Shown piece by piece: positions 30,879-53,478 of a stretch of 64,000 nt of DNA. A program made the translations under genes and the position numbers. The notes under the pieces are model-generated. The model did not search any database, was not told the DNA's origin, and saw nothing but the letters and a program-made list of their open reading frames with translations. This DNA is from a virus, in the IMG/VR virus record IMGVR_UViG_3300048837_000485, positions 1 to 64,000 of that record. One strand, given 5' to 3'. Position 1 is the stretch's first letter. Each line of letters opens with the position of its first letter.

Positions 30879-30880
30879 AT

Positions 30881-33972: not shown

Positions 33973-34653
33973 CTATCGGCTCCATCTTGATGGTTTTGGT
34001 AAAATTTGTTCTTCAATATTAGAATAATAATTATCCTTTTGACTTACTATACAAGGATAAATTCCATAACAATTAAATCTATCGTGTAAAAATCTTCCGG
34101 ATAAATCATCATATGGGCCAATTGGATCAAATTCTAACAAAGCTTTAACAACATAATCTTTAATTAAGATCGAATGAAATCCTCCGGCTCCACTGAGCCT
34201 CATAACATTTTCATGCTGAGTAGGACTCCATGATCCTGGATTTGGATAACTTCCTAAATATAACATGTCCCAACCAATAGTTTCTAGATAAGGACTAACC
34301 TTTTCTAAAATATCCTTGGCATCTTCTTCTATAAACGAATCATCTTCAAGCAGAAGAAGAGTAGATAGTCCAGACTGGATAAAACTTTGGAAAATCTTCC
34401 TGTGACTTAACCACGCATTATATGTATTAGCTTTCCACCACGTAGGATAATCAGTGGAGTTAGAATATACGGGCGGGAGTTTATCTATATCTATATGATT
34501 ATACAAACTTTTTGAAAGCTTCTTACCTTTTCCAACAATAAATGGCTCAATAGAAATACCAAATTGAAACCATTCTTTTTTAATCCTTTGTACTTCTTCA
34601 ATACGCTCATCTAATGTAAGACACTGTCCTACGTAAATATTATCTAATATCAT
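33973..34653 (-). CDS. Glycosyltransferase family 25-like
   Basis: Short GT25/LPS glycosyltransferase-type protein. It has an N-terminal VGQCLTLDERIEEVQRIKKEW segment, AWLSHRKIFQSFIQSG, and the acidic site LLLLEDDSFIEED. A later MRLSGAGGFHSILIKDYVV segment fits the acceptor side. 226 residues. It abuts the FkbM gene with no gap and overlaps the upstream SDR gene by 14 bases. Confidence 0.8.
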   Translation of the reverse strand: MILDNIYVGQCLTLDERIEEVQRIKKEWFQFGISIEPFIVGKGKKLSKSLYNHIDIDKLPPVYSNSTDYPTWWKANTYNAWLSHRKIFQSFIQSGLSTLLLLEDDSFIEEDAKDILEKVSPYLETIGWDMLYLGSYPNPGSWSPTQHENVMRLSGAGGFHSILIKDYVVKALLEFDPIGPYDDLSGRFLHDRFNCYGIYPCIVSQKDNYYSNIEEQILPKPSRWSR

Positions 34654-35521
34654 TTAAAGCTTCCTTAATTGAATCTTCACTATTAAGAAATCCAGTCCGA
34701 CTCAACTTCAAACAAAACGAATTGTCCGCATGAAGATGTTTATTATCACCCTTCCAATTGGCCTCATCACCCATCCATCTAATTTTCTTATTTATTCCAG
34801 TATAAGACATTATAATATTAGCAACATCCTCAACAGAAATAGGATCGTTATTACAAATATTTAAAACTTTATTATGTTTGATCATCTTGTTTAATGGAAT
34901 CTCGACCATCTTATTTACAACATCTTTTACATAAGTATATGGCTTAATAGATCCCGGTTTATCACCAAGTAACTCAATATAATCATTATCAGTCTTTAGT
35001 TTTTCTAAGATGATTTTAATTAATCCGTGGGTTAAGTGTGGGCCCACCATCGCTCCTAATCTACAAATAGTATAATCAATATCATTTAGAACAGAATAAG
35101 CTTTGATTAGTTCTTCACACGCTACCTTTGTTGCGGCATAGACAGATGTAGAATCACGATGATCTTCTTGTTCGTTTTGTTGAGTTGATTTATCACCATA
35201 AACTACTATTGAAGACGCAAATACCATTTTTGATCCAGGTTGCATATATCTTAAAATGTTGTGCGTACCCTTAATGTTAACATCTAAAATACGATTTTGG
35301 TCTTTGTCTGATGGCTTGGAGTTTGGGATGGCGGCTAGATGATATACAACATCTGGCTTAAAAGACATCATTAATTCTACGTTTTTTTCATTAGTAATAT
35401 CATTATAAAAATACTGATTATCCCTTGGATTGAATAGAATTATATCATCATATTTTTTACTTAGATAACCGTGTAAATTTCTACCAAGAAACCCATTTCC
35501 TCCAGTGATTAAAATTCTCAT
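34640..35521 (-). CDS. NAD-dependent epimerase/dehydratase
   Basis: Extended SDR: LITGGNGFLGRN, VVYHLAAIPN, FASSIVVYG, and the catalytic YAATK, all intact over 293 residues. It overlaps the CgeB-like gene upstream by 4 bases. Third SDR enzyme of the cluster. Substrate unknown, probably another NDP-sugar step. Confidence 0.85.
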   Translation of the reverse strand: MRILITGGNGFLGRNLHGYLSKKYDDIILFNPRDNQYFYNDITNEKNVELMMSFKPDVVYHLAAIPNSKPSDKDQNRILDVNIKGTHNILRYMQPGSKMVFASSIVVYGDKSTQQNEQEDHRDSTSVYAATKVACEELIKAYSVLNDIDYTICRLGAMVGPHLTHGLIKIILEKLKTDNDYIELLGDKPGSIKPYTYVKDVVNKMVEIPLNKMIKHNKVLNICNNDPISVEDVANIIMSYTGINKKIRWMGDEANWKGDNKHLHADNSFCLKLSRTGFLNSEDSIKEALNDIR

Positions 35522-36552
35522 AAGTTCTTTTTCTCTGTTACTATTTGTTTACCATTAATTAATGATTTAGTATCTAAATTTAGTTTATTAAAAATATCTA
35601 CTAGTCTCTCAAAGGCTGTGTGTTTTTCTAAAACACGTTTGTAAAGTATATCTATGTTATTTTTCTCTGCTTGATTATTTAAATAGTATTGAATAAGCTT
35701 TTCATATTCTTCTGGATTTTTAGCAGTGATACATTCTGGAAAATCTATTTTTAATCCTTCAACATAATCAGAAACAAAAAAGCATTTATTTATCATTAAG
35801 TTATATGGACGTGTTACTATATCATAGCCAAGTTTTGTAGAATGAGGCTCATGTACCGATAAACATACTTTAGTAGATTTTAAAATATGTTTAGCCTGTT
35901 CGTCTGGTAAAAACCCACAATATTTTGCCGTAGCCCAATGCTGATTACCAAAGATTCTAATTTTATAATTACGATCTGGTTCACAAAGTGGCATGATATA
36001 TTTATCTAAATTTTGTGCTTTGTATCCCCAATATCCACCGATAAATGAAAGATCACATTCTAGTTCTTTTTGATATTCTCCATTTGTATATTCAAATAGA
36101 TCGGCAAAGTTTTTAAATGAATATAGGTCAAATCCATCCGTCAACCAATTTTCATGTGTTTCTTTAATCCAATTTTCGTGGTGATGAGAATGAACTACTA
36201 ACTTATTTGGTAATGTTTGAATATGCTTCATAAATTGAATTTCTTTTTTTGAAGCCGTTAGTACTGGATATACCGTCTTATCTAATTCGTCATTAAACTT
36301 TGACCAGTCTGAAACCCTTAAAACCAAACTCATATCCGGACGTTCTTCTATACACTTAACAAACGCTGGGGTTAGGTTGTATCCTTGTCCAAAAAATAAA
36401 TCAGGATTAGCTTCATCAAATGCATCATATACTGGCTTTTGCCAAGTGTTCCATAAAATAGTTTCGTGGCCAGATACAGCAAGTGCTTTAGAAAATGCTG
36501 ATCTAATGAAACTATGGGCATTTTTATTATCGTTAGCTATTAATATACGCAT
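35518..36552 (-). CDS. Glycosyltransferase, CgeB/GT-B-like
   Basis: GT-B fold pattern: N-terminal RILIANDNKNAHSFIRSAF and a central CDLSFIGGYWGYKAQNL. The C-terminal nucleotide-sugar part has KVCLSVHEPHSTKLGYD and RPYNLMINKCFFVSD, close to CgeB-type glycosyltransferases. 344 residues. ATGA coupling to the following SDR gene. Donor and acceptor not visible. Confidence 0.75.
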   Translation of the reverse strand: MRILIANDNKNAHSFIRSAFSKALAVSGHETILWNTWQKPVYDAFDEANPDLFFGQGYNLTPAFVKCIEERPDMSLVLRVSDWSKFNDELDKTVYPVLTASKKEIQFMKHIQTLPNKLVVHSHHHENWIKETHENWLTDGFDLYSFKNFADLFEYTNGEYQKELECDLSFIGGYWGYKAQNLDKYIMPLCEPDRNYKIRIFGNQHWATAKYCGFLPDEQAKHILKSTKVCLSVHEPHSTKLGYDIVTRPYNLMINKCFFVSDYVEGLKIDFPECITAKNPEEYEKLIQYYLNNQAEKNNIDILYKRVLEKHTAFERLVDIFNKLNLDTKSLINGKQIVTEKKNL

Positions 36553-37252
36553 CTTCTTTTAACTTTCTAAAATGATCCTGGGTTTGTATTTTCTTAATTA
36601 ACATACCATTTGGTTCTATACCGTTAAAAATACAACCATCATTAATTATTTGGTTTATAATTTCAAATAAAAATAGTTTATTATTGGTTTTATTACAAAG
36701 TTTATTTAACAAGTAAAGAGATCTATTCTCAAAGAAGGAAATGTGGCACCATTTTTTCTCATCTAAAACTAAATCTATACGCTCTACTTTTTTATTAATG
36801 ACAGTTATTCCTAGTTCACTGTCTCTAAGCTGCATTTTAGAATCAAATACTAATGTAGGACTAGTTGTTAAATTAGATACTGCATATTTATTAAAGATAA
36901 GGTCTGATGATATAGTAATAACATGTTTACTGTTAGTGTTATTTAGTGCCAATCTTACATCTTCAACTTCATTTGTTTCATTATAAAACTGATTCTCAAC
37001 TACACGAATATTATCAGATTTAAATTTTAAAACCTTTTCAATTTGATATCCGCCAGTAATAATAATATCTGACTTAGGATAGATTTGTCTTATTGATTTA
37101 ATTTGGGTTTCTAGCATAGGTTTCCCAAATTTATCTTTATATAAACACTTAGGCCCGAAAGATTTCATTGATTCATTAAATCTACTTCCGTAGATAATAA
37201 TACAGACTTCTTTAGGATCTTGTTTATTTCTTCGTTTTATTTGTTCTATCAT
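36533..37252 (-). CDS. Nucleotidyltransferase-like GT-A protein
   Basis: Begins VCIIIYGSRFNESMKSFGPK, a variant of the sugar-nucleotidyltransferase G-x-G-x-R ... PK signature, followed by GKPMLETQIKSI and DIIITGGYQ. The usual metal-binding Asp region reads VITISSDLIFN. So it resembles MobA/RfbA-like enzymes that activate sugars, but with a loosened first motif. Overlaps its neighbours by 20-29 bases on both sides, within the sugar operon. Could be inactive or have altered specificity. Confidence 0.55.
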   Translation of the reverse strand: MIEQIKRRNKQDPKEVCIIIYGSRFNESMKSFGPKCLYKDKFGKPMLETQIKSIRQIYPKSDIIITGGYQIEKVLKFKSDNIRVVENQFYNETNEVEDVRLALNNTNSKHVITISSDLIFNKYAVSNLTTSPTLVFDSKMQLRDSELGITVINKKVERIDLVLDEKKWCHISFFENRSLYLLNKLCNKTNNKLFLFEIINQIINDGCIFNGIEPNGMLIKKIQTQDHFRKLKEDAYINS

Positions 37253-37994
37253 GTAATTTTTGAGATACCCTTTGCCAACATTGGTTCCATATTTCTTTTT
37301 TTACAGAATTTGTAGAATTATTTTGATGAACCCTAACTAAAGAAAGAGACTCTGGAACGTGTGATATATAGCATATTTCTGATAACCTAAGCCACAAGTC
37401 AAAATCTTCTGCACACCTAAGAGTTGAATCATACCATCCGGTATCTTCTTTAACCCTATTTAAAAAGTTTTTACTAATTAATGATCCACTATGAACAATA
37501 CATTCTTGTGTTAATCTTGATCTAGAAAACCTTTCTTTATATTCTCTTCTAATTAAATCTTTATCAACATCTAAAATATCGTAGTCCGCATAAACTACTC
37601 CAACGTTAGGATCTTCTAAATCTTTCAAACATCTTTCGAGTTTATTAGGATAGTTTTCATCATCAGCATCGAGTATGGCATACACGTCTGTATTTTTGAT
37701 TGTCGCAGCAATACCGATGTTTCTTGCATAGCTTGGACCATGATTTTTTGATAAGGAAATAAGTAAATCTGTTCCGTCTGTATATTTGATATATTCATTT
37801 TCTTCTATTTTTGAAGGTAAGTTTAACGTATTAAGTATAATTTCTACAGAATTATCTGTTGAACCATCATCTATAATACAAATTTTATTTTTAACAGTTT
37901 GGTTTTTTGCACTTTGAATTGCATTCTGTATCCACTGTGAGTTATTGTAACAACAGATTATAAATGTTACTTGCTTATCCATTCTCTTATCCAA
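37224..37994 (-). CDS. Family 2 glycosyltransferase
   Basis: Classic GT2: TFIICCYNNSQWIQNAIQS, CIIDDGSTDNS, ARNIGI, and AILDADDENYP with the DxD. A late RCAEDFDLWLRLS carries the catalytic ED motif. 256 residues, complete. All key residues are present, so it should be an active inverting transferase. Confidence 0.9.
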   Translation of the reverse strand: MDKRMDKQVTFIICCYNNSQWIQNAIQSAKNQTVKNKICIIDDGSTDNSVEIILNTLNLPSKIEENEYIKYTDGTDLLISLSKNHGPSYARNIGIAATIKNTDVYAILDADDENYPNKLERCLKDLEDPNVGVVYADYDILDVDKDLIRREYKERFSRSRLTQECIVHSGSLISKNFLNRVKEDTGWYDSTLRCAEDFDLWLRLSEICYISHVPESLSLVRVHQNNSTNSVKKEIWNQCWQRVSQKLHDRTNKTKK

Positions 37995-38689
37995 TCTGGC
38001 CTTTTATTTTCTTTGGCTATGTTTTCAATTTTGTCTATAATACTTGAGTCGGTATTACCATATACGGCTTTATGCATTAACCTATTTACAGTTAAGAAGT
38101 TCATTTTATCAGTAGGTCTTACCATTAAAACCCTTTGTAGGTCATCATTAATAATTTTATCCAAGTCATCTATTAATTGATTTTCCATTAAAGGAATTCT
38201 ATTTTGTTCAATAATCATATAATATTCACCCTTACAGTAATTAACTATATGATCTATTTTTCCTGCTTCATCTGTTTGGTCAAAGACTATACACACATTA
38301 AAAGGACAGTCGCAAAACTTAGAAAACACTTCTTGCACTTTCCAGTATTCTGAATTCTGATCAACAATTAATTTAACACAGTGTGGACCTAATGAACTAA
38401 CACCAGATGCACATAATGCTAAGTCTGTACGATCTAATGAAGTTATTGGAATTATAATATCTACCTTAATCCGTACCTCCATCCTAACTTCTTCTTTTGG
38501 ACTAATATACCTATCTAAATATTTTGTATGTCTACACATATTACAAAGACGATCAATCATAAAATGAGTACCACACTCAGAAGATTTAACCGCTTTTCCA
38601 AATTTTTCTAATCTACCAATTTGACATCCTTTTTGGATACCGTTGGAATATATAGCAAACAAACAGTCTTTACAGGAAGTCTTAGTCAC
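37967..38689 (-). CDS. GT2-like protein with N-terminal cysteine cluster
   Basis: Residues 5-55 contain CKDC, GCQIGR, ECG and CNMC, likely a zinc site. Residues 75-240 look like a degenerate GT-A fold (VDIIIPITSLDRTDLAL, GEYYMIIEQNR) lacking the DxD. It overlaps the GT2 gene by 28 bases. Perhaps a regulatory or scaffold partner of the GT2 enzyme; activity is doubtful. Confidence 0.5.
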   Translation of the reverse strand: MTKTSCKDCLFAIYSNGIQKGCQIGRLEKFGKAVKSSECGTHFMIDRLCNMCRHTKYLDRYISPKEEVRMEVRIKVDIIIPITSLDRTDLALCASGVSSLGPHCVKLIVDQNSEYWKVQEVFSKFCDCPFNVCIVFDQTDEAGKIDHIVNYCKGEYYMIIEQNRIPLMENQLIDDLDKIINDDLQRVLMVRPTDKMNFLTVNRLMHKAVYGNTDSSIIDKIENIAKENKRPDWIREWISK

Positions 38690-38714
38690 GATAAACCTCT
38701 AATCCACTCATAAG

Positions 38715-39158
38715 TTATGCTCTGTAAGCCTCAACAATAAATTTAGTTTCTTCTAATCTTTGTTTTGTAATTTTAAGTCCCAATTGTGACAAAATTGAAG
38801 TTATATGAATAATTGTGGTACAGCTTCTTTTAAAGCCCCATCCTGAAGGATTCCCGTCTCCATATAGAATAGTATTAATTTTTTGTACTGGGGTTGCTTG
38901 TGTTAAACATTGTTTTGATACTTCAAAAACATCTGTACCACCAAGAATAATTCTGCCACCATGTCTAAGTTTAGAAACATACCCGGAAACAACTTCTTGA
39001 ATTTTATCGTATAAAATATAATCGATAATATCTTCAGCAATAATTTCTGTGCACTCGGCCTGTTCTACAGGAAGATCTAGAACGTTAGATCCAGTTAATG
39101 GTGATATATTTTTATATCCTGAAAGTTCGTATGGTTGGATTGTTATATTAAGTTTCAT
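38715..39158 (-). CDS. Degenerate SAM-methyltransferase-like protein
   Basis: The middle reads ECTEIIAEDIIDYI ... KLRHGGRIILGGTD, which resembles the post-motif region of class I methyltransferases, but the N-terminal glycine-rich SAM loop is missing. 147 residues. It shares its first six residues (MKLNIT) and about 18 bases with the next upstream gene at 39148, a small 5' duplication. Confidence 0.45.
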   Translation of the reverse strand: MKLNITIQPYELSGYKNISPLTGSNVLDLPVEQAECTEIIAEDIIDYILYDKIQEVVSGYVSKLRHGGRIILGGTDVFEVSKQCLTQATPVQKINTILYGDGNPSGWGFKRSCTTIIHITSILSQLGLKITKQRLEETKFIVEAYRA

Positions 39159-39474
39159 TTTTTGGTTCCATTACTATAAATCTTGATAATGAAGTTCTAA
39201 AACTAGATTCTTCATCTGGCTGAAATTCAAATCCAATATATCCTTGAAAATTATTATCACACCCAATTAATCCATTTAATATACCAAGTAAACCAACGGT
39301 ATATCCGTCATTTTGTCTCATAACTTGAACAGTTGGATGGTCTGACAACTTTTCATTACATGGAACCCTGTTTGCTATTAAACATGCTATAGCGTTTTTA
39401 TCATATTCTAATAATTCATTCATAAAATTAACAATATATTCTGCAAATTCTTTTTCTGTTATATTAAGTTTCAT
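39148..39474 (-). CDS. Hypothetical protein of the glycan cluster (108 aa)
   Basis: Small soluble protein starting MKLNITEKEFAEYIV. The middle holds GLLGILNGLIGCDNNFQGYIGFEF, a beta-rich segment. No family recognised. It overlaps the start of the methyltransferase-like gene by 11 bases and shares the MKLNIT start with it. Confidence 0.55.
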   Translation of the reverse strand: MKLNITEKEFAEYIVNFMNELLEYDKNAIACLIANRVPCNEKLSDHPTVQVMRQNDGYTVGLLGILNGLIGCDNNFQGYIGFEFQPDEESSFRTSLSRFIVMEPKNET

Positions 39475-39483
39475 TATCTTATC

Positions 39484-40482
39484 CTAGTGTGAAAGTACAT
39501 AATTAATCACGCAGTGCCATTGTTTTACCCATCTATTTATATTACACCGCTCTATAATTGTTTTTCGAGCATTAGCACTTAGTTTTTCAGCTAAATCATT
39601 ATCATTCATAATCAATCTTATGGCTTCTAATATACCCTTTTCATCATTAGCTAATAATCCATTTTCCCCGTCTTTAATATAACTCGGTATTGCACAAGTA
39701 GCTACAGAAACCGGAATACATCCACATGACATTGCCTCAAGCATTGATGTTGGAATTGGACTAAGTGGTGCAGTATTTAAAAAGATCTTAGCGGCCCTAT
39801 ATTCTTCAATAAGCTCATTAACTGATTCTGCTGATTTGGATAACCCAGGAGTATCGCCTACGAATCTTGTAGGAATCTTACTAGCAATTTTTTGACATAG
39901 TTTCCAATTTAAAACATAATCACGACCAATTAAATCATTAGCAACTACTAAACATTTATTTTCTCGTTTTGTTGATCCCGGAGTAAAAAGATTAGAGTCA
40001 ACAGTATGTTCAATCACAAATACATCATCACCAACAAATCCCCAATTTTCTTTACTCCATTCTGAAATAAATACATTGGCAGTACCACGCATATTTCTTA
40101 ATTGACTCACTTGTTGCTCATTCCACATTGGTGGTGGCATAACGCAAGTATGCTCAACAGAAATCATTGGCAATTGGAATTGCTCAGCTAGATGTGCTAG
40201 TGTTTGGAATTGCCCAAATTTAGACTGAGATAATACAAAATCAAAATCTAACCACAAAGGAAACTCAGGTTGTCCTACACGATTATACAGTAAATGATAA
40301 TTAGTAGGAATTGGTGCGAATTTAGTATTCCACTGTTTATGATGTTTATTTTGAGAGATAGCCCAAAAGTCAACTCCGTTTAAATGTTGAAAATGACTTT
40401 CTGTCCTCTCATGTGTGCAAACACTTAATCCATGCAAATGAGACCTGTCTAATGACTTCATTATTGATCTAGTTTGTGACAA
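39484..40482 (-). CDS. GT-B glycosyltransferase (GT1/GT4 type)
   Basis: The C-terminal half is clear: a donor-site region with APLSPIPTSMLEAMSCGCIPVS and a later DGENGLLA. 332 residues if it starts at the TTG at 40482, which has SD AAGGA about 8 bases upstream. An ATG at 40461 lacks an SD. The TTG start gives SQTRSI, echoing the MSQTRLI start of the next upstream gene. Complete, probably active. Confidence 0.85.
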   Translation of the reverse strand: MSQTRSIMKSLDRSHLHGLSVCTHERTESHFQHLNGVDFWAISQNKHHKQWNTKFAPIPTNYHLLYNRVGQPEFPLWLDFDFVLSQSKFGQFQTLAHLAEQFQLPMISVEHTCVMPPPMWNEQQVSQLRNMRGTANVFISEWSKENWGFVGDDVFVIEHTVDSNLFTPGSTKRENKCLVVANDLIGRDYVLNWKLCQKIASKIPTRFVGDTPGLSKSAESVNELIEEYRAAKIFLNTAPLSPIPTSMLEAMSCGCIPVSVATCAIPSYIKDGENGLLANDEKGILEAIRLIMNDNDLAEKLSANARKTIIERCNINRWVKQWHCVINYVLSH

Positions 40483-40675
40483 CTTCTTTTTCCTTTATAT
40501 AATCAAAATCAGGCCATAGGTCGCCAGTATATTCTCTACCTTCTCTATTAAACCATTCCTTGGTTAGATTTATAATTGCATCTGATATAGTTGGACCATA
40601 ATGTTTGTAACTTGTAAAAAACGCTAAACAGTCAGCAGCCTCATTTGAAACTGTTATTAATCTAGTTTGACTCAT
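40469..40675 (-). CDS. Hypothetical protein (68 aa)
   Basis: Small protein starting MSQTRLITVSNEA, no motif. Its ATG overlaps the stop of the glycosyltransferase upstream by 4 bases, and its end overlaps the next glycosyltransferase. The first codons resemble the beginning of that next gene. Function unknown. Confidence 0.5.
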   Translation of the reverse strand: MSQTRLITVSNEAADCLAFFTSYKHYGPTISDAIINLTKEWFNREGREYTGDLWPDFDYIKEKEVVTN

Positions 40676-41757
40676 ACCAAAAGCTCCACCATTCTTTCTC
40701 CGATATTATCATACGAATAATTCTTAGCTATATTCAAACCATCATCTCTTTTATTCTTATGGTTCTCATATACAAGTCTCATATTCTTTTGTAATTCCAG
40801 TATATCAATACTATTCCAAGTTTCACGACTAGACTGAATATCTTTAAAAGTATCCATTGTAGCATAACACTGTTCTTCCTTAGAAGAAACAAGATATCCA
40901 TTAGAATATTCATTTAAATAATCCACAGGTCCACCGAAATCTGTAGAAATTACTGAATTACCAACTGCCATAGCATCAAAGGCACCATAGCACCAAGCTT
41001 CTCCAAAAGAAGAATTAATATAACAATGACAAGCTTGATGCAAAGACATAATCCGTTGTCTAGTTAAATGTTCAGTAATAATAATTTCTGGTTTATAATA
41101 CTCAATACTTGGATATATTTTCAACCCTTCTTTAATTTTATTTAAAGAAAATATTACTTCTTTTCTAGTATCTTCTGAAGAAGTATTAAACTTACTAGTT
41201 TTAACAATTAAATTAACTGGCTCGTTAGATGAGAATTCATTATGAAATGCACGTATTAAAGATGGTAGATTTTTTCTACGGATGAATTCACCAATAGTAT
41301 AGAAGTTAAAAGTTTCAGGCAGAGAAAAAGAGGGGTATAGCTCGTAGTATTCGTTAATATCACAAGCGTGTGGAACTAAAAACTTAGGCCGCGTAATATC
41401 TTTCTCTTTTAATGCTTGCTCATAAGGAACCCATATCTCATCCATAAGATTCAGGTTAGAACACCATCCTGAATATTTTATATTCCTAGATTCTAAGATG
41501 GAAATAGCTATATTTTTATAATTGCCATTATAGTCCATCCAGTGTGGTAATAGATGCTGGATGATATGTGTAATTCCGTCGCTATCATTATCTAGACATT
41601 CTTGGATATCATCAGGTGGTAATTCGTTTTTAGAGAGAAATATAGATCGGGCGACAACTTCTGTTTTTGTTTTTAACGAACGAATATAATCCCTGGCACA
41701 TCTTGACCATCCAGAATCACCCTCATTCAAATGTCCTAAATATAATACTTTAGACAT
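40672..41757 (-). CDS. GT-B glycosyltransferase (GT4-like)
   Basis: 361 residues. N-terminal MSKVLYLGHLNEGDSGWSRC is the acceptor-domain start. The linker reads NFYTIGEFIRRKNLPSLIRAF, and the donor site is SFGEAWCYGAFDAMAVGNSVIST with the E-x7-E spacing. Complete. SD AGGAG is duplicated 58 bases upstream together with the first codons of this gene (see repeat at 41736). Confidence 0.88.
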   Translation of the reverse strand: MSKVLYLGHLNEGDSGWSRCARDYIRSLKTKTEVVARSIFLSKNELPPDDIQECLDNDSDGITHIIQHLLPHWMDYNGNYKNIAISILESRNIKYSGWCSNLNLMDEIWVPYEQALKEKDITRPKFLVPHACDINEYYELYPSFSLPETFNFYTIGEFIRRKNLPSLIRAFHNEFSSNEPVNLIVKTSKFNTSSEDTRKEVIFSLNKIKEGLKIYPSIEYYKPEIIITEHLTRQRIMSLHQACHCYINSSFGEAWCYGAFDAMAVGNSVISTDFGGPVDYLNEYSNGYLVSSKEEQCYATMDTFKDIQSSRETWNSIDILELQKNMRLVYENHKNKRDDGLNIAKNYSYDNIGERMVELLV

Positions 41758-41840
41758 TGTGGCTCCTAACTTGTGCCCAATCGTGTAAACGATCTAAATA
41801 TAATACTTTAGACATTTTTGCTCCTAATCTGTTCCCAATA
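41736..41840 (-). repeat. Duplicated gene junction (58-base period)
   Basis: The junction between the two glycosyltransferase genes occurs twice, 58 bases apart. Each copy has the end of the upstream gene (W-x-Q-x-RS-x-NV stop), an SD AGGAGC and the start MSKVLYL. The upstream copy opens a 21-codon mini-ORF (41750-41815) that ends at the real start. About 40 of 47 aligned bases match. Confidence 0.85.
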
Positions 41841-43409
41841 ATTATACTTATTTGCTATATTCAAAATATATTTATAACATTCCTCTCTATTAAAAGGCAT
41901 CATTTGAGCCCTTCCAGCTATAGATGTATCGTCTCCAAAATTAGATAATGGATTATGAGTAGTTACACCATAGTTCAATTGTCGTATAAGTTTCAATTCT
42001 AAATAAGTGTTTGAATATTTAGGAATTAAATGATGAATTAATGTTTTTACAAAAGTAGTATTAGAACATTTTTCTGGGGCTTTAATATTTGTATTAATAT
42101 ATTTAATAGGATCTTTCCATTTATTTTGAATAACTATTTTATCAAAAACATCGGCCCATACTTTTATTGTTTTATCCCATCCATAATTTTTAATATAGCC
42201 ATCATGTGCCCTCTTTCCTTCTGCTTTCATCAGCACACTTGGTTTATTAAAAAACTCCATTAACTTATCAACAAAGAATTCATTATCGGGCATCCCCCAA
42301 TCTCTTCCGGTTTCTAATTCGTAGTATTCATAGATAACCTTTAATGGTTCACCATTTAGTTTTCTAACCACATCCTTCATTGCTGAAAAATCTACTTCCA
42401 TAACCGGAACACCACAGGCTGCGGCTTCTACTCCAGGAACACCAAATCCTTCCAGGTAGGAATAAAGAACGAATAGATCCATTAAGTTATAAACTACCGC
42501 AAAGTCTTTTGTTGTGAGTCCATTTTTAACAGAACACATATGTGCTTTTGGTTGTTTACACCTATGGCAAAAATTAGAAATATCCGAAAAGAATGATGGA
42601 AAAAAGAACCCACAGTTTTCACATCTATAACTAAATAGTGTTTTAGAGCTAAGTCCATATTTATTTAAAAGTTTAGGTATATCCCATCCTGAATCTGGAT
42701 ATGAAGTATGACAATAAAGTAAAATGTCGTTGCGTTCAGTTCGATCAAGGAATAATCTAAACGATTTAAATAAATCTGGAAAAGCTTTTCTTTTTTGGTT
42801 TCTCATAACGGTACCGATAATATATTTATCTTGTAATCCGTATGTTTTCTTAATATGTTCTTTGTTTAATGGCTTAAGATCAGAAGATACTGCTGGTGGT
42901 GCCTCCGATAAAACATCTAGTCTTTGAAAAGTTTCATTAATTAAAGTATCTTTAGACCAGTCATTATATGCTAATACTGTGTCACACCTAGAATAAACAT
43001 CCAACCATTCTTCGTGTTGATTTGGTGCATCAGCAGTTACCATCCAAATCCAGTGAAATTTATCTCTAAATGGAGATTCGTCTACAAAATTATCTTGCCA
43101 AAAGTCTGAGGTAGAAATCACTACAGTAGGTTGAAAATCCAAACATATTTTTTCAAATATTAATTCTCCAAACATATATTTCTGATTTGATCTAAATTGC
43201 TCTAAAGCCTTAGTATCCTTTTTACTTGGTACTACCGGATAAACTTTCCACGGTTTGTTGTAAACCCTTTGGTCTTCAGGACTTACATACCGTGCCATCT
43301 CTGCAACTTCATATTTCTTACTTAATTCCATAAGTAACTCACGACAGTACGCAGCATATCCTGTAGATAGATCAGAAAACTCGGAGATAACTAATATTTT
43401 ATGATTCAT
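41808..43409 (-). CDS. GT-B glycosyltransferase with inserted zinc-ribbon (533 aa)
   Basis: GT4-like plan: ILVISEFSDLSTGYAAYCREL at the start, IIGTVMRNQKRKAFPDLFKSF at the linker, and LYSYLEGFGVPGVEAAACGVPV at the donor site. Between linker and donor site lies an insertion with two Cys pairs (RCENCGFFFP and FCHRCKQPK), probably a zinc ribbon. The C-terminal 100 residues extend beyond the usual GT4 end. It overlaps SSB by 11 bases, linking the glycan operon to replication genes. Confidence 0.85.
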   Translation of the reverse strand: MNHKILVISEFSDLSTGYAAYCRELLMELSKKYEVAEMARYVSPEDQRVYNKPWKVYPVVPSKKDTKALEQFRSNQKYMFGELIFEKICLDFQPTVVISTSDFWQDNFVDESPFRDKFHWIWMVTADAPNQHEEWLDVYSRCDTVLAYNDWSKDTLINETFQRLDVLSEAPPAVSSDLKPLNKEHIKKTYGLQDKYIIGTVMRNQKRKAFPDLFKSFRLFLDRTERNDILLYCHTSYPDSGWDIPKLLNKYGLSSKTLFSYRCENCGFFFPSFFSDISNFCHRCKQPKAHMCSVKNGLTTKDFAVVYNLMDLFVLYSYLEGFGVPGVEAAACGVPVMEVDFSAMKDVVRKLNGEPLKVIYEYYELETGRDWGMPDNEFFVDKLMEFFNKPSVLMKAEGKRAHDGYIKNYGWDKTIKVWADVFDKIVIQNKWKDPIKYINTNIKAPEKCSNTTFVKTLIHHLIPKYSNTYLELKLIRQLNYGVTTHNPLSNFGDDTSIAGRAQMMPFNREECYKYILNIANKYNYWEQIRSKNV

Positions 43410-44199: not shown

Positions 44200-45273
44200 T
44201 TATTTGATTTTTGATATTACAAACCCTCCTTTTTTACCAGGATAACCCATAACGAATATTACGGCCCCTGGGTATAGCTTGTGTCTATTCTCTGTCCACA
44301 CTTCTGAAAATACCATACATTTGATTTCTCCGGTATTGTCAGACGCATTAAAAGACCCCATCATTTCACCCTTACTTTTTCCCTGCTTGATTTTATATTC
44401 TTTTGGTTCGGTAATTTCTAATATTAATGTACACTCATTCTGCTTACCATCGTTAATTTCTTTACATGTTGCATTTGCAATCTCGTCAGAAATATCTGTT
44501 TTGTGAAAGTCAAGACAAATACCAAGCATTTCATTTTCAACATCGTATCTCCAGGCCGGATCATCAATTAAAGAATATGGCGGATGATCTAAAGCCTTAA
44601 TTAAATCTTGAATAATAACCCGCCTGTTAATATTAACCTTATCAAGTATAAATTTAAACTTTTCCTGTAAAGTACCTTTGCATTCTAACGTTAAATTGAT
44701 TTCTCTAGAGGATAGCTTATTATAAATGGTATACTGATGCAGCATATCCTTTCTACTAATTCCATATTCATCAAAAAAACCAACAGATGTTAGATTGATC
44801 ATTGTTTGTTTTTGTAAGTTAGCTTCTAATATATCTATCCATGATGGATTTTTAGAAAGAGTTTTCATAAGAGATTTAATATGAAGTTTACCAATTTGCT
44901 TTACATGTTGTAATCCAAATAAAATCTCTCCGTTCTTATGATAAAAATCTACAATACCATCTTCTTTAATGTCGGACAGGTGTGTCATGCGTACATTTAT
45001 GTCATGTCTTTGAGCATCCGTAACTAATTCTTTAATTTCAATTTTTGGCTTTGGTTTATCTTTAGCATTGTTTAAATATTCAGTATAGAATTCTAGAGGG
45101 TAATGAGTTTTTAGATACGCAGTCCAGTAGGAGATGTAGCTATAACTAACTCCATGTGAATTTGATGTGATTATGTTATTAGCATAAAATAAATGATGAT
45201 CATTATCAACCTCTATATCTAGAGTTCTAATTTTTCCTATTGGTTTTATGGATTTAATTTTAGTAAATTGCAT
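44200..45273 (-). CDS. dnaE: DNA polymerase III alpha, C-terminal piece with C-intein
   Basis: The first 38 residues are a split-intein C-half: TLDIEVDNDHHLFYANN followed by IITSN, then Ser+1. The extein begins SHGVSYSYISYWTAYLKTHY, the conserved continuation of the DnaE fingers (FNKSHSAAYA-like in E. coli). It carries on through helix-hairpin regions to an OB-type domain (TLILEITEPKEYKIKQGKSKG ... GAVIFVMG). Splicing with the piece at 46190 would restore FNQ-SHG exactly. It overlaps the endonuclease gene by 28 bases. Confidence 0.9.
   Translation of the reverse strand: MQFTKIKSIKPIGKIRTLDIEVDNDHHLFYANNIITSNSHGVSYSYISYWTAYLKTHYPLEFYTEYLNNAKDKPKPKIEIKELVTDAQRHDINVRMTHLSDIKEDGIVDFYHKNGEILFGLQHVKQIGKLHIKSLMKTLSKNPSWIDILEANLQKQTMINLTSVGFFDEYGISRKDMLHQYTIYNKLSSREINLTLECKGTLQEKFKFILDKVNINRRVIIQDLIKALDHPPYSLIDDPAWRYDVENEMLGICLDFHKTDISDEIANATCKEINDGKQNECTLILEITEPKEYKIKQGKSKGEMMGSFNASDNTGEIKCMVFSEVWTENRHKLYPGAVIFVMGYPGKKGGFVISKIK
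45160..45273 (-). other. C-terminal half of a split intein (38 aa)
   Basis: Contains intein blocks F and G: a beta strand with D-x-E-V-x-N-D-H-H, then the terminal Asn preceded by Ser, followed by Ser as the first extein residue. The length of 38 residues is normal for a C-intein. The N-half lies at 46193-46489 with a separate endonuclease gene between. Confidence 0.9.
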
Positions 45274-46157
45274 AATTCTTTCTCAATTTGTTTTATATTA
45301 TTAATAATATCATCTTCCCAAAATCTTGTTAATGATAAATTATTATTTTTAAAATAATTATTCTTTTTTAAATCTCTGTAAAAGTTAACCTTTTGTGTTT
45401 TTGTCTTAGGACCATTTGGATAAAACTTTATATTCGAGTGAAAATAATCACCATCAACTTCTATATATATATTATATTTTGGTAAATAAAAGTCCACTGA
45501 CCAAAATTCTACTATTTTTTCTCTTTCAAAAAGAATATTTAATTTTCGTAATAATTTACTAAACTCTTTTACGGGTTTCGTTTCGTTTTGATTAAATTTA
45601 CCATCTTTAATCATCTTCAATGTATTTTGTCTAAATTTTTCTTTATTTTCTGCCGTGTGCTTATGTCCAGTATGTCCATGAACAGTTCTTTTTAATGCAG
45701 ATTCTTTTTGTTTTTGTCTAACCTTTAAGGGGGTTGTTCTACCCTTTGTTTTAATACTAGTTTGTAATACAGATGGGTGTGTAAATTTTGTTTCATCTTT
45801 ATTCCAAGGTATTTTTTTATACATTGGATTACCAGCACCTTTTCTAGTAATTTTTGCATCCTGACTCCATTTTTGTTGTCCAGGATTTCTACCGCATGCA
45901 TACTTTTTATATCTAAATTTTGATCCTTGTATTATTATACTTAAGTATTTATTACAAATTTTACATGGGCACTTCTTTCTTTTTAACTTACATGTATTAA
46001 AAAAATATTCATTATATGTTAAACCATGATCTATTTTTAGATGCTTTAAGAATACCTGTGTAAGATACACCCCACCGCCTCCATATATTGGAGCCAGTAA
46101 CTTGATTGTTTTTTTGCATATTTTACATATATGCCATTCTTTATTATTTATATTCAT
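45246..46157 (-). CDS. Freestanding EDxHD homing endonuclease inside the split intein
   Basis: 303 residues. The N-terminal zinc-like part has CKICKKTIK and CPCKICNKYL. A middle NUMOD3-like region has GHTGHKHTAENKEKF. The nuclease core has WSVDFYLPKYNIYIEVDGDYFHSN (E-D-H pattern) and later SLTRFWEDD. This type is known from fractured genes of environmental phages where a freestanding endonuclease sits between split-intein halves. It has SD AGGAG and a TGTATAAT promoter-like element overlapping the end of the preceding polymerase piece. Confidence 0.87.
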   Translation of the reverse strand: MNINNKEWHICKICKKTIKLLAPIYGGGGVYLTQVFLKHLKIDHGLTYNEYFFNTCKLKRKKCPCKICNKYLSIIIQGSKFRYKKYACGRNPGQQKWSQDAKITRKGAGNPMYKKIPWNKDETKFTHPSVLQTSIKTKGRTTPLKVRQKQKESALKRTVHGHTGHKHTAENKEKFRQNTLKMIKDGKFNQNETKPVKEFSKLLRKLNILFEREKIVEFWSVDFYLPKYNIYIEVDGDYFHSNIKFYPNGPKTKTQKVNFYRDLKKNNYFKNNNLSLTRFWEDDIINNIKQIEKELCNLLKLNP

Positions 46158-46188
46158 ATGATTGACTCCTATTAATGTCTCTCATAGT

Positions 46189-46196
46189 ATTATACA
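46189..46196 (-). promoter_or_regulatory. Putative promoter -10 (TGTATAAT) for the internal endonuclease
   Basis: The octamer overlaps the final Val codon and stop of the N-intein gene and lies about 30 bases upstream of the endonuclease ATG at 46157. It could give the endonuclease its own transcript. Confidence 0.35.
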
Positions 46197-47056
46197 TTAT
46201 TTTCATCCAAAAGGGTCATTTCATGATTATTTTTAATAATATCAGACAATCGTCTTATAATTTTATCTGAACATAAAAATTTATGATTAAGAGTACATAA
46301 AATACTATCTCCAGATTCTAATATTACTTCATATACTTCTTGTTTTCCTTGTTCTATTTTATTTAGAACCGTAGAAAATACATTTGTTTTATAGTCACTA
46401 GATGGTGTTAAAATTTCATCCCCAATATTTACTTCATCTAGTGTTAGATAACCGTGTCTAGATTCTACTACTGTATCAGGACTTAAGCACTGATTAAATG
46501 AGTATCTTTGACTGTTTTTAATATTCTCAAATACTTCTTTAGATAATTGCTCATCTAGTTTACCAATTGTTTTACAGCCATCAAGAAATGTTTTTTCTAA
46601 TGATGCCATAATTTTTGAATCTTTGGTACCAATAGCTTTACGTAAAATATCAGCTTGAATTAAATCAAAGCCTGCTAAAATTTGTGCAAGACGCATAGCC
46701 TGTTCTTGATAAACAATAATCCCCTGAGTTGGCCCAAGAATAACTTCTAAATCTGGATGTTGAAATTTAATTATATCTATTTTGTTTTTACGATCACAGT
46801 AAACTTGTGTTAAAGATTTAACCTTTCCGTTTTCATCAGTTAATTTACTTTCGAGGGTTCCTGGTCGTATCACAGAGATTAAGTCAGATAACTCTTCAAT
46901 AGATCTAGGCTTTAATTCTTTAGACCAGTGTTTACCTAGGTATTCTAGTTGAAAAATCCCCTTAACGTCTCCACGACAAATCGTATCCCACGTCAACTCA
47001 TCATTCGTTGGTAAATTATATATTAGATCATTGATTGTGTTTTGTAACATATTCAC
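46190..47056 (-). CDS. dnaE: DNA polymerase III alpha, middle piece with N-intein
   Basis: Residues 1-189 match the alpha-subunit fingers: GDVKGIFQLEYLGKHWSKEL, LSDLISVIRPGTLES, GIIVYQEQAMRLAQILAGFD, ADILRKAIGTKDSKIM, and RYSFNQ. Residues 190-288 are an N-intein: CLSPDTVVESRHGYL (block A) and GDSILCTLNHKFL (block B with Thr and His). The start is GTG 47056 or ATG 47050, overlapping the HNH gene by 22-29 bases. It continues the piece at 50729-52432 and joins the piece at 44200 by protein splicing. Confidence 0.9.
   Translation of the reverse strand: MNMLQNTINDLIYNLPTNDELTWDTICRGDVKGIFQLEYLGKHWSKELKPRSIEELSDLISVIRPGTLESKLTDENGKVKSLTQVYCDRKNKIDIIKFQHPDLEVILGPTQGIIVYQEQAMRLAQILAGFDLIQADILRKAIGTKDSKIMASLEKTFLDGCKTIGKLDEQLSKEVFENIKNSQRYSFNQCLSPDTVVESRHGYLTLDEVNIGDEILTPSSDYKTNVFSTVLNKIEQGKQEVYEVILESGDSILCTLNHKFLCSDKIIRRLSDIIKNNHEMTLLDENNV
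46193..46489 (-). other. N-terminal half of a split intein (99 aa)
   Basis: Begins with Cys1 right after FNQ and has blocks A and B. No endonuclease domain is fused; that function is encoded separately at 45246. The size of about 99 residues is usual for a split N-intein. Confidence 0.9.
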
Positions 47057-47867
47057 ACATTCTTATAAAATACTCTTCTTTTAAATTTTGTTTCATCTTA
47101 TTTATATCTTTATGTACCCATTGTACATTTTCTTTAGTATAACCTTTTGATGAGTCTATCCTATCAAGGGACGCATTTCTTTTTTTACCGGGTCCTAAAT
47201 ATAGACTTATTCCACTTAATTTACATTTTCTATCTTGATCTAAAAAAACTTGCCAAATATATTCAATACTTATTGAAAATTCTATTTTATTATCTAATGC
47301 TCTTTGTTTTATTCCATTAAAATGACCACCACTTATTTCCTCATAACCTTTCCACATATAATGTTTAGAACCGCTTCTATAACATCCGCAAGAATTGGTT
47401 TCTCCAGACATTAAATTAGAAGATATAATATCTATGGTTTTACCACAATCACACAAGCATGTCCAAACTGAATTGTGTTTATTTTTTTTATTAGATAATT
47501 TTTGTACTGTTAGGTGTCCAATCTTTTTGCCTATTAAGTTAGTTGGAGTATTTCCTAATTTAGTGTTAATATTATATTTTTTAAGAAGTTTATATATTGC
47601 TTTATTACTAAAACCGTATTCTTTTGCTATTATATTACAACTTTTTAAGTTTATAAAATACTCTTTGTATAAAATATTTTTTGGAATAGCCTCTATTACT
47701 TTTTCTATTTTAATATGTTTTGTCGGCCCCTTTTGTAAATCATATTTTTTAATATATAAAGATATACTTCTTTTTTTTAGGTTTAGTATTTTAGATATTT
47801 TAAGTATAGTATATTTTTTATTATAGTATAAATCATACAACTCTTCTTTAGATATCATTTTATTCAT
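47028..47867 (-). CDS. HNH homing endonuclease
   Basis: 279 residues. The N-terminus holds two helix-turn-helix-like units (LYDLYYNKKYTILKISKIL; KEYGFSNKAIYKLLKKYNI). Then come a zinc/AP2-like unit (WTCLCDCGKTIDI ... TNSCGCYR) and an HNH-type core (CKLSGISLYLG ... NASLDRIDSSKGYTKENVQW). It is the immediate upstream neighbour of the middle polymerase piece, overlapping its start. This suggests a link to the inteinless break in DnaE. Confidence 0.85.
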   Translation of the reverse strand: MNKMISKEELYDLYYNKKYTILKISKILNLKKRSISLYIKKYDLQKGPTKHIKIEKVIEAIPKNILYKEYFINLKSCNIIAKEYGFSNKAIYKLLKKYNINTKLGNTPTNLIGKKIGHLTVQKLSNKKNKHNSVWTCLCDCGKTIDIISSNLMSGETNSCGCYRSGSKHYMWKGYEEISGGHFNGIKQRALDNKIEFSISIEYIWQVFLDQDRKCKLSGISLYLGPGKKRNASLDRIDSSKGYTKENVQWVHKDINKMKQNLKEEYFIRMCEYVTKHNQ

Positions 47868-48675
47868 AATTATACTTACTCATGATTCTAGTAATAACCT
47901 TGTTCTCTTCTTCAAAACACGTATTATTAAATTTTGATCTCATTTGTTTATGAACATGACGAGTTAATTTCATAAATTTAATTAATAACATTGCCCCTTG
48001 TAGAACATCCACAATTCCACTATGAGCCCCTTCTTTATTAATACCAAACTTTTCTCTCATATTATCCATACTATAACTTTTTACAGTATAATCGGACTCA
48101 AACCAATGAAATAACATACGGAGAAGGTCAAAATTATCTCTAGGATGAAAAAGTTTTGACTGTCCTTTTTTATCATCCCAAGGTCCAAGTTTATATGGTT
48201 CTTTAGTAGGATAAGTATTAGTTACCATTTTTCCTAATTCATTCTTTTCTTCTATAGAATAGGTTGGATTTAACCTACAATTACCACCAATAATTCTATC
48301 AGTAATTATATCATCAAATCTATTATTATTAAAACCAGCACAAATTGGGGCGTCCCATAATCTACCAGTCTTGTTAAATTGATTAACAAAGGTACAAAAT
48401 TGAGCCCATACTACTTTTAAGTCAGGTGCTTTTTCTAATCTTTCAATAGACATTCCTGTGATTTCTAATGCCTTATCTTCAATTTCACCTAGACCATTCT
48501 TTAACTGCTTGTCTTTATCAAAGATGGGTCTTATATCTGAATTAAAAATACCGGTTTCGATAATTTCCAACTTCTTAGGATCTATTGCAACAGCTGCAAG
48601 CTGTGTTGGTTGAGTATTGTTTTTATCCTTGCCGGTTGTTTCGTAATCCATGAAGATAATTGTATTAGAGTTCAT
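47860..48675 (-). CDS. DEDDh 3'-5' exonuclease (DnaQ/ExoI-like)
   Basis: Exo I motif FMDYETTGKD (D-x-E), then GFNNNRFDDIITDR as Exo II, and GAHSGIVDVLQGA as Exo III with the H-x4-D spacing. 271 residues. The polymerase PHP domain here has lost its metal-binding residues, so this separate enzyme is the likely proofreader. It overlaps the HNH gene by 8 bases. Confidence 0.85.
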   Translation of the reverse strand: MNSNTIIFMDYETTGKDKNNTQPTQLAAVAIDPKKLEIIETGIFNSDIRPIFDKDKQLKNGLGEIEDKALEITGMSIERLEKAPDLKVVWAQFCTFVNQFNKTGRLWDAPICAGFNNNRFDDIITDRIIGGNCRLNPTYSIEEKNELGKMVTNTYPTKEPYKLGPWDDKKGQSKLFHPRDNFDLLRMLFHWFESDYTVKSYSMDNMREKFGINKEGAHSGIVDVLQGAMLLIKFMKLTRHVHKQMRSKFNNTCFEEENKVITRIMSKYNYE

Positions 48676-50728: not shown

Positions 50729-52432
50729 CTATATATCTGATTTTACTGTTTTTCCTTGGATTATAGTGAATATATGCTCTACTTTTGCCAGTGCGTTAAC
50801 AGAAAGTGCGTCGAACTTCGTAAGTCCAGCCTTCTTAAGAGAATCCATATCCATTCCTGCAACTTTAAAATCACTACTTTTATCATGTAACATTGGACAA
50901 ACATCTTCTAAATTTATTGGAGATATAACTAAACCAGCAGCATGCTTGCCTTGATTCTTAAAAGTGCCTTCTAAACGAATGGCCTGTTCAAAATATCCAG
51001 CATAATCCCCAGTATATTTACCATCTTTATATTCACAATAATCTCTTAGTACATCTGGTTTATTTTCAAGAGTCCATTGTAATATAGAATATTTACCACC
51101 ATTTTCTTCCATTTCTACCAACTGTGGTTCTATATCGGCCTCTTGAGGAAGTAATTTTGTAATCCTATTAATCTGTTCAAAGCTACCAACTTCATGTGCT
51201 GAAAATATTTCTTTAACGATTGAAGACCCCATCATTCTTCCGAATGTTGCAACCTGTGCTACTCTCTTTTCTCCATATTTATTTCTAATATATTCAATAA
51301 CTGATTCACGACCATCAGGAGGAAAGTCCGTGTCAATATCTGGATATTCAATTTTACCCTCTGAAAATCGGCCAGAGTTTAAAAATCTAGAAAATAATAA
51401 ATTATAAGGAATCGGATCTAACTCCGTGATTCCTAATAAATAACATACTAAACTGCCCGAGCTTGACCCCCGACCAAGCCCGACTAACATTCTTTCTTTT
51501 GCCCATCTAATATAATCAGAAACAATTAAGAAGTAACCAGTAAGATCATATTTTTGAATAACTCCTAATTCTTCTTTTACACGTTCTCCATATAATTCTT
51601 CATTCCAAGATTCTTTCTTTCTGTTAGCATATCCTTCTCTGCATAATTTTAATAGATAATCTTTTTCAGATAATCCTTCTGTCCATTCATACTTTGGTAG
51701 ACTTGGTTTATTTAGAATATCATATTCTTCAATATTATCTACCCAAGAAACATTATCTAGCGGAACATGTTGTGATGATAATGCTGGAATAAATTCAGGA
51801 TTAAGATCAAGGTTCTTATTAAGGTTTTTTAAAGAGCAACGAAAAGCCGAACATAATAATATCTTATAATCTTCTAAATCTGATTTATCGAGAATATGAC
51901 AATCGTTAATTTTATCAAGTTGTATTTTATATTTTTCACACAGTTTTATAATTTCACTGTTATTCAAACACTTTGGAGTTAGAATACCATAAAGATTCTT
52001 AAATTTGTTGATATATTTTTTAAATTCTACTTCTGTAGTAACTGAATATAATCCACCAACTAAACAGATTAAGTTATCAGTATCGGTTATATCTTCTAAA
52101 TTTAGAACTGGTCTGTGTTTATAGTTATCATTACTCTTAGAAACCAAGTGAAGTAACTGTGTATAACCCGTCTTATTTTTAGCTATTAAATGTATAGCTT
52201 TATTATTTGAATCTAAAAACTTACATCCTATAATTGGTTTGATATCGTTATCTTTACAAGCTTTAGCAAACTCAATTGCACCCGATAATGAATTATAGTC
52301 ACTTAAAATTAATTGTTTATCTGGACTTTTTTTACAAAAATCTTTTGGATGATATAATGCCGAAAGTAAGGCATTTTCCTGTTTAAGATTTAAGGGAGAT
52401 AGTCCATAGGTTGTGTGTACAAGGGTTGTCAT
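50729..52432 (-). CDS. dnaE: DNA polymerase III alpha, N-terminal piece (PHP and palm)
   Basis: 567 residues from ATG 52432, with SD AAGGA nine bases upstream inside the end of the endonuclease gene. The PHP region is recognisable (LSDYNSLSGAIEFAKACKDNDIKPIIGCKF), but the metal-binding HLH and TDH motifs read VHT and SDY, so it is probably inactive. The palm has VGLGRGSSSGSLVCYLLGIT and the catalytic PDIDTDF. The third catalytic Asp lies in GLTKFDALSVNALAK near the end. The chain then stops about 20 residues later. The continuation is encoded at 46190-47056. Confidence 0.92.
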   Translation of the reverse strand: MTTLVHTTYGLSPLNLKQENALLSALYHPKDFCKKSPDKQLILSDYNSLSGAIEFAKACKDNDIKPIIGCKFLDSNNKAIHLIAKNKTGYTQLLHLVSKSNDNYKHRPVLNLEDITDTDNLICLVGGLYSVTTEVEFKKYINKFKNLYGILTPKCLNNSEIIKLCEKYKIQLDKINDCHILDKSDLEDYKILLCSAFRCSLKNLNKNLDLNPEFIPALSSQHVPLDNVSWVDNIEEYDILNKPSLPKYEWTEGLSEKDYLLKLCREGYANRKKESWNEELYGERVKEELGVIQKYDLTGYFLIVSDYIRWAKERMLVGLGRGSSSGSLVCYLLGITELDPIPYNLLFSRFLNSGRFSEGKIEYPDIDTDFPPDGRESVIEYIRNKYGEKRVAQVATFGRMMGSSIVKEIFSAHEVGSFEQINRITKLLPQEADIEPQLVEMEENGGKYSILQWTLENKPDVLRDYCEYKDGKYTGDYAGYFEQAIRLEGTFKNQGKHAAGLVISPINLEDVCPMLHDKSSDFKVAGMDMDSLKKAGLTKFDALSVNALAKVEHIFTIIQGKTVKSDI

Positions 52433-53478
52433 TAATACCAATCCTTACAAGTAATTACTTCATAGTTTGATCCATTTAGTAATTTTTCAATTCTTTTATT
52501 AATAGTAGATATTTTTGGTAATCTATATTTAGACCTTATTACTAATACTTTCCAACCAAGTTTTTGCAATTTTTTTACTCTTTTTAAGTCTTTTGATTTA
52601 GTGTTTTTATGCCATTTTTTGCTATCATATTCTATGGCAATTTTTAACTTTGGAATAGCTATATCAATATACATTCTGGGATTATTTATTTTATAGTTAT
52701 GATCTTTTTCGGTGGTATGATATCCAGCATCTATTAATCTTTGATGTAGGTCTAGAGCCATAAAGGATGTTTTAATACCATTTCTAAACTCATAACAGTT
52801 ACCACAGGTTTTAACAGATTCTGATTTAATCAAATTAGAAGATAATTCTTTAGTTTTTCCACACTCACATTTACATAACCATAAAGCTTGTTTATTTTTT
52901 ATTTTTAAATATTTAATAACTTGTAACTTACCGGTCTTTTGTTTAAAACCGTTTAAATCTAATCTAAATCTTAGCGACGTTTGTTGAGATTGATAGCATC
53001 CACATGATTTAGTATCGCCTTTAAAGATAGATTGTAATAAGGTATAAAATATTTTACCACAATGACATTGTACTTTATGTTTAATAAAGTTAGCACATTA
53101 ATATTTTTCTAATAACTTCAACCCAAGTACTCTTAATCTTTCTTTTGCTAGTTCATCAGTAATTAGAGTTTTAGATTGTAAATTTAATCGTACTGCCTTT
53201 TTATTTATACCTTTTTTAGTTCTTTTTAAAATTTTGGCACATTCAACACCACCTAAAAGTGTATAATTTTTGATCAGAAAATCCGTTTCTTCTTGCGTCC
53301 AAGATTTATTCTCAGAGGTAATTTTTATAGCAATAGCGTGTGATTTTACAGATGTATACGTACGGTTTAGTACATTAGAACATCCCCTGGGTCCTAATAG
53401 TTTATAATTTTTCCTAAGAAATTCTTCCTCTTTTTCGGTCCAAAGTTGTCTTTTCCAGCCGGTTTTTCGTTTATTCAT
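52432..53478 (-). pseudogene. Myb/zinc/EDxHD homing endonuclease interrupted by an in-frame stop
   Basis: A single frame of 349 codons with one TAA at 53098-53100 (codon 127). Before it are two Myb-like units (LWTEKEEEFLRKNY and SWTQEETDFLIKNY). After it, still in frame, come two Cys4 zinc units (QCHCGK ... KSCGC; LCKCECGK ... KTCGNC) and a Vsr-like EDxHD core (LKIAIEYDSKKWHK). The order matches the intact 656-residue enzyme at 21007. So it is one gene broken by a nonsense change, or two pieces made separately. Its last codons hold the SD of the polymerase gene. Confidence 0.85.

What the first reader, a model, noticed from the sequence alone, without database searches (positions are those of the whole stretch)
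45160..46489. Phage DnaE carries a split intein with a freestanding endonuclease between the halves
The N-intein (46193-46489) follows DnaE residues ending FNQ. The C-intein (45160-45273) precedes SHGVSY. Between them is an EDxHD endonuclease gene on the same strand. Joining the exteins gives FNQSHG, the conserved DnaE sequence. This is the fractured-gene arrangement reported for other phage genes. By my alignment, the insertion point here is a few residues downstream of the well-known cyanobacterial split DnaE intein site. If the phage replicase requires trans-splicing, replication depends on it.
Basis: partly seen in the sequence, partly recalled or inferred. Interest (0 to 1): 0.9.

Follow-up and report, generated by a model that had tools for sequence, protein, structure and literature searches.

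The report
Phage replicase cut by split intein
In this uncultured tailed phage the gene for the replicative DNA polymerase is broken by a split intein with a homing-type nuclease gene between the halves, so the protein pieces should be spliced back together after translation; at least twelve other distinct phage loci have the same arrangement at the same place, and some show it decaying or apparently healing.

Summary
On the minus strand a DnaE finger fragment ends RYSFNQ|CLSPD (99-aa N-intein), a 303-aa Vsr/EDxHD-type endonuclease follows, then a 38-aa C-intein (...ITSN) leads into SHGVSY. Joining the exteins restores the DnaE motif, and all splicing residues are present. The intein's best solved relatives are Npu DnaE and gp41-1; the nuclease's is I-Bth0305I. 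The arrangement recurs at the same codon boundary in 12 other distinct phage loci, so it is no assembly error. It is a fractured gene (known kind, Dassa 2009) in DnaE, 4 residues downstream of the cyanobacterial site; contiguous inteins fill the same site in other phages and several bacterial phyla.

Relatives form a series: intact nuclease, LAGLIDADG nuclease instead, dead nuclease remnant, and two contiguous mini-inteins nested among split ones, one carrying a nuclease scar. That suggests fracture can reverse. Splicing and homing are inferred, not shown. Whether Dassa's list already includes DnaE could not be checked.

The parts
50729..52441 (-). DnaE part 1: PHP and palm domains with the PDIDTDF and KFD motifs; ends just after the palm, no intein at its end
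   Evidence: Pfam DNA_pol3_alpha 1.5e-64 and PHP 2.2e-13; NCBIfam PRK05673 5.2e-94; motifs
47860..48675 (-). DnaQ/RNase_T-like exonuclease gene lying between DnaE parts 1 and 2
   Evidence: Pfam RNase_T 6.5e-11; PHROG DNA polymerase exonuclease subunit 4.6e-17; between the parts in 44 of 44 distinct two-gene loci
46490..47056 (-). DnaE part 2, N-extein: finger domain, ending RYSFNQ (GTG at 47056 or ATG at 47050)
   Evidence: Pfam DNA_pol3_finger 3.3e-36; ORF
46193..46489 (-). N-intein, 99 aa: Cys1, block B TLNH; stop codon at 46192-46190
   Evidence: NCBIfam intein_Nterm above cut-off; PDB matches to DnaE inteins; residues
45246..46157 (-). Free-standing endonuclease, 303 aa, Vsr/EDxHD family, C-terminal nuclease core with EVDGDYFH; AGGAG ribosome site at 46166-46170
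   Evidence: 13-member family alignment; profile best hit I-Bth0305I 3r3p 2.2e-6; fold match 3r3p
45160..45273 (-). C-intein, 38 aa, own ATG that overlaps the end of the endonuclease gene; block F HHLFYANN, ends ITSN
   Evidence: NCBIfam intein_Cterm above cut-off; same length and start in 16 of 17 split loci
44200..45159 (-). DnaE part 3, C-extein: begins SHGVSY; HhH and OB-fold regions
   Evidence: NCBIfam PRK05673 positions 752-1043, E 3.9e-26 for the whole ORF; weak Pfam HHH_6 and tRNA_anti-codon matches

Best explanation
A tailed phage encodes its DNA polymerase III alpha subunit (DnaE) in three genes. Parts 2 and 3 end and begin with the halves of a split intein. After translation the halves should associate, fold into one intein and splice out, joining FNQ to SHG and giving a polypeptide of about 510 aa from fingers to OB fold. 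That polypeptide would pair non-covalently with part 1 (PHP and palm) to form the replicase. The endonuclease between the halves is of a homing-endonuclease family and probably cuts uninterrupted dnaE near the FN[KQ]|SH codons, so that repair copies the split-intein cassette into the gene. Shown: the anatomy, its recurrence, intact splicing residues, the nuclease family, and a transfer-like identity pattern in relatives. Inferred: splicing, non-covalent assembly, and the nuclease's target.
For: Exact N- and C-intein halves with all splicing residues; PDB matches of the joined halves to Npu DnaE and gp41-1 inteins; a contiguous relative at the same site folds as a Hint domain, pLDDT 96.8, best matches gp41-1 and NpuDnaE; same three-part order in 12 other distinct loci; splicing residues kept in 17 of 17 split loci, including L240 where the nuclease is dead; empty-site relatives; nuclease profile and fold hit I-Bth0305I; intein DNA 96-100% identical between L236 and L239 while flanking exteins are 69-79%; intein and extein trees disagree; no second copy of the DnaE parts in the record.
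Against: No biochemical or proteomic data. Neither half was folded with its partner. The break between parts 1 and 2 has no identified joining mechanism. Homing is inferred from family and comparative pattern, not from cutting. The record is 66.5 kb with no end repeats, so another polymerase may lie outside it.
Confidence: 0.9

Rival explanations
1. The intein halves are relics: parts 2 and 3 do not splice, and the three fragments either assemble non-covalently or the gene is dead.
For: Part 1 and part 2 are already separate genes with no intein between them across this phage group, so non-covalent assembly of this DnaE is tolerated.
Against: All splicing residues, both half lengths and the C-half start codon are kept in distant relatives with C-extein identity of only 30-36%; L240 keeps intact halves although its nuclease is dead. 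All DnaE parts are open and match DnaE models.
Confidence: 0.06
2. Sequencing or assembly error: really one contiguous intein with a nested endonuclease, or a mis-joined contig.
For: The window is a metagenome-derived viral contig.
Against: The three ORFs are in different frames, with a ribosome site before the nuclease; the same layout occurs in 12 other distinct contigs from many samples.
Confidence: 0.01
3. RNA-level joining: one or both breaks are fractured group I or group II introns rather than protein-level splits.
For: EDxHD-type nucleases are also known from phage introns (PMC3943268; PMC12350094), and an HNH-type gene abuts part 2.
Against: No Rfam match at gathering threshold in the window. 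Relatives have clean, variable gene ends and starts at the palm/finger break. The FNQ|SHG break is fully explained by intein halves.
Confidence: 0.03

Closest known systems
Fractured genes with split inteins and Vsr-like (EDxHD) endonucleases (Dassa et al. 2009, NAR 37:2560; recalled, paper not held)
   Same: Conserved DNA-synthesis gene in phage, broken by a split intein with a free-standing Vsr-like nuclease gene between the halves
   Different: Here the host gene is a DnaE that is already in two genes; whether DnaE is among their eight enzyme types could not be checked
Cyanobacterial split DnaE intein (Npu, Ssp)
   Same: Split intein in DnaE, similar half lengths, penultimate Ser, significant sequence match
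   Different: Cyanobacterial site is Y|CFN with +1 Cys and, from established knowledge, no nuclease gene between the halves; here FNQ|SH with +1 Ser, 4 residues downstream, with a nuclease gene
Split PolB intein of Pseudomonas phage MIJ3 (PMC6892783)
   Same: Phage DNA polymerase gene in two ORFs with a split intein and an endonuclease ORF between
   Different: Family-B polymerase and an HNH nuclease; here DnaE (family C) and EDxHD
I-Bth0305I homing endonuclease
   Same: Closest solved relative of the nuclease by sequence profile and by fold
   Different: I-Bth0305I is annotated as a mobile intron protein; this one sits between intein halves and has a different, longer N-terminal region

Membership tests
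Fractured gene (split intein plus intervening endonuclease gene) | One conserved enzyme coding region broken by N- and C-intein halves in separate ORFs | tested here: met
Fractured gene (split intein plus intervening endonuclease gene) | Free-standing endonuclease gene between the halves | tested here: met
Fractured gene (split intein plus intervening endonuclease gene) | Precise joint restoring the uninterrupted protein of relatives | tested here: met
Fractured gene (split intein plus intervening endonuclease gene) | Halves splice in trans | not testable with these tools
   Residues intact; no experiment
EDxHD / Vsr-like homing endonuclease | Vsr-like catalytic core related to I-Bth0305I | tested here: met
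   3r3p best hit by profile, 2.2e-6, and by fold; conserved E213, D222, E233, D235, H240 and D262
EDxHD / Vsr-like homing endonuclease | Cuts the uninterrupted host gene and drives homing | not testable with these tools
   Comparative pattern only
Cyanobacterial split DnaE intein allele | Insertion between Y and CFN with +1 Cys | tested here: not met
   Window site FNQ|SH with +1 Ser; cyanobacterial exteins AEY and CFN
DnaE (bacterial DNA polymerase III alpha) | PHP, palm with catalytic Asp motifs, fingers, and C-terminal region | tested here: met
   Spread over three ORFs; HhH and OB matches in part 3 are weak in Pfam

The most novel reading that the evidence does not exclude
Gene fracture by split inteins is reversible and cyclic. 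A homing nuclease gene splits a mini-intein; the nuclease then decays (L240), and the halves can re-fuse into a contiguous mini-intein (L236, L223), in L223 leaving a nuclease scar of about 20 residues at the former break. All stages coexist at one site in the DnaE of one phage group, whose alpha subunit is itself a natural two-gene enzyme with an exonuclease gene between the parts.
Probability: 0.55. Interest if true: 0.75.

Novelty: new member of a known kind. Interest (0 to 1): 0.6.

Why it matters
It places a split intein in the replicative polymerase of a phage group, at a DnaE site distinct from the cyanobacterial one, and gives 17 natural split-intein pairs, three of them starting with Ser, that could serve as tools. 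The related loci (contiguous, split with either of two nuclease families, split with a dead nuclease, and probably re-fused) make the origin and fate of split inteins directly testable. The two-gene DnaE with an exonuclease gene between its parts is a replicase layout that I did not find in the cultured phages or papers searched here.

Tried and rejected
Group I/II intron at either break: no Rfam match, and clean, variable gene ends at the palm/finger break in relatives. Hidden intein at the palm/finger break: none seen by eye in 44 distinct two-gene loci. Second copy of DnaE parts in the 66.5-kb record: none. Single-sequence searches with part 1 and with the nuclease found nothing in viral contigs; the nuclease and the exonuclease have no match in cultured phages. 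A direct cyanobacterial comparison through a genome bin named Pleurocapsa failed: the loci reached showed no cyanobacterial-type site, so that site rests on a paper. Dassa 2009 is not held, and the passages read in papers that cite it do not list its host genes.

Full report
WHAT IS THERE. The minus strand carries, in order of transcription: DnaE part 1 (50729-52441; PHP and palm, motifs PDIDTDF and KFD), several small genes, a DnaQ/RNase_T-like exonuclease (47860-48675), a gene that looks HNH-like but has no Pfam match (47028-47867), DnaE part 2 (finger domain) ending RYSFNQ and continuing as a 99-aa N-intein (46193-46489), a 303-aa endonuclease gene (45246-46157), then a 38-aa C-intein (45160-45273) that leads into SHGVSY, DnaE part 3. 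The three ORFs around the intein lie in different frames; the endonuclease has an AGGAG ribosome site. Joined, the exteins give RYSFNQSHGVSY, aligned without gap to uninterrupted YSFNKSHA in relatives. A tape-measure gene shows that this is a tailed phage.

IS IT AN INTEIN. The N half passes the NCBIfam intein_Nterm cut-off and the C half the intein_Cterm cut-off. Joined, they match the Npu DnaE intein (4kl5, E=3.6e-10) and gp41-1 (6qaz, 4.4e-9). A contiguous relative at the same site (L236) is predicted with pLDDT 96.8 and matches gp41-1 and NpuDnaE structures best. The window's own halves were not folded together.

IS THE GENE BETWEEN A HOMING-TYPE NUCLEASE. Thirteen members align over their whole length; the window's is 44-53% identical to the others, and the E-[VI]-D-G-D-Y-x-H core is conserved. 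Their profile finds I-Bth0305I (3r3p) first, E=2.2e-6, then more weakly Vsr. The predicted model (mean pLDDT 77.9) also finds 3r3p first.

RECURRENCE. A DNA-pattern scan and two alignment-driven scans of viral contigs gave 12 further distinct loci with the same three-part order at the same codon boundary: L238, L188, L237, L234, L220, L192, L231 (four near-identical contigs), L219, L222, L224, L239, L241. Three others (L232, L233, L244) are split with a LAGLIDADG-type gene between the halves and an intein starting with Ser. One (L240) is split with only a nuclease remnant. In all 17 split loci, the window included, Cys1 or Ser1, the block-B His, the block-F His, terminal SN and +1 Ser are kept. 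The C half is 38 aa in 16 of 17; L232 lacks an ATG there.

SITE. Bacterial DnaE genes of several phyla and other phages carry contiguous inteins at exactly FN[KQ]|SH. The cyanobacterial split intein has exteins AEY and CFN (PMC8484483), so it lies four residues upstream. The site is therefore occupied elsewhere; I did not find it discussed in the papers searched.

MOBILITY AND FATE. L236 (contiguous) and L239 (split with nuclease) share 96% identity over 273 nt of the N half and 100% over 111 nt of the C half, but only 79% and 69% in 450 nt of extein on either side. This points to recent transfer of the intein. In the intein tree L236 sits in a supported group (97/90) otherwise made of split inteins (L239, L222, L240, L192), so re-fusion is the simpler direction. 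L223, contiguous and grouped with the window and L231 (97/94), carries SQAAQRRIIHGHTGCSHSTE at the former break. This stretch is 65% identical over 20 residues to one nuclease of the family, and the family profile finds L223 at E=2.6e-7 in a small set of contiguous inteins. L240 keeps intact halves, but its nuclease is a C-terminal remnant with a stop inside EVDGDY*HSN. Intein and extein trees disagree: L219, L224, L233 and L244 are one extein clade (100/100) but carry different intein lineages and nuclease types. Well-supported branches force at least three changes between split and contiguous in the intein tree; the direction is a parsimony inference.

THE SECOND BREAK. Parts 1 and 2 are separate genes in 44 distinct loci, and in all 44 the exonuclease lies between them. 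Nine loci have the two fused, one of these with the exonuclease downstream. Ends and starts there vary and show no intein. The likeliest reading is a two-gene polymerase that assembles non-covalently. L192 has parts 1 and 2 fused and is still fractured by the split intein, so the two breaks are independent. No cultured phage record matched this exonuclease.

MECHANISM. Shown: anatomy, intact residues, recurrence, nuclease family, transfer-like identity pattern. Inferred: trans-splicing to a polypeptide of about 510 aa, assembly with part 1, cutting of empty dnaE by the nuclease. These are the functions expected from established intein and homing biology; no experiment was done.

STATUS. It works like, and meets the sequence-level tests of, a fractured gene as described by Dassa et al. 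2009 (recalled; paper not held). A comparable case in a phage PolB is reported (PMC6892783). I therefore call it a new member of a known kind, with a series of related loci that may show reversal of fracture.

Noticed in passing
47860-48675 with 50729-52441; L003-L046, L187-L245: DnaE is in two genes (PHP+palm and fingers onward) with a DnaQ-like exonuclease gene between them in 44 of 44 distinct two-gene loci; nine loci have them fused.
   Followed up: partly
57228-59690: DnaB-like helicase with a contiguous LAGLIDADG intein inserted in the P-loop (K|CGKS).
   Followed up: no
47028-47867: HNH-like gene wedged between the exonuclease and DnaE part 2, overlapping the start of part 2; no Pfam match. 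Related sequence lies near DnaE in some relatives.
   Followed up: no
52432-52833 and G000:C1:63852-64241: Two 66%-identical MTES_1575-type nuclease segments; the first abuts the start of DnaE part 1 and looks like the end of a decayed nuclease gene, as HNH-gene-like pieces lie just upstream.
   Followed up: no
18303-19292, 21007-22989, 27252-28025: Further homing-type nuclease genes: one that looks GIY-YIG (by eye) and two with DUF559/Vsr-like domains.
   Followed up: no
28499-43409: Long run of glycosyltransferase-, sugar epimerase- and methyltransferase-like genes (by eye); two glycosyltransferase-like genes follow DnaE and SSB also in L056, L062 and L068.
   Followed up: no
L188, L226, L240, L242, L243; L043, L046, L058, L062, L235: Further insertions at other DnaE sites in relatives: intein-like ones near residue 325 of part 1, and ones after RPG in the finger domain, some with an HNH-like insert.
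   Followed up: no
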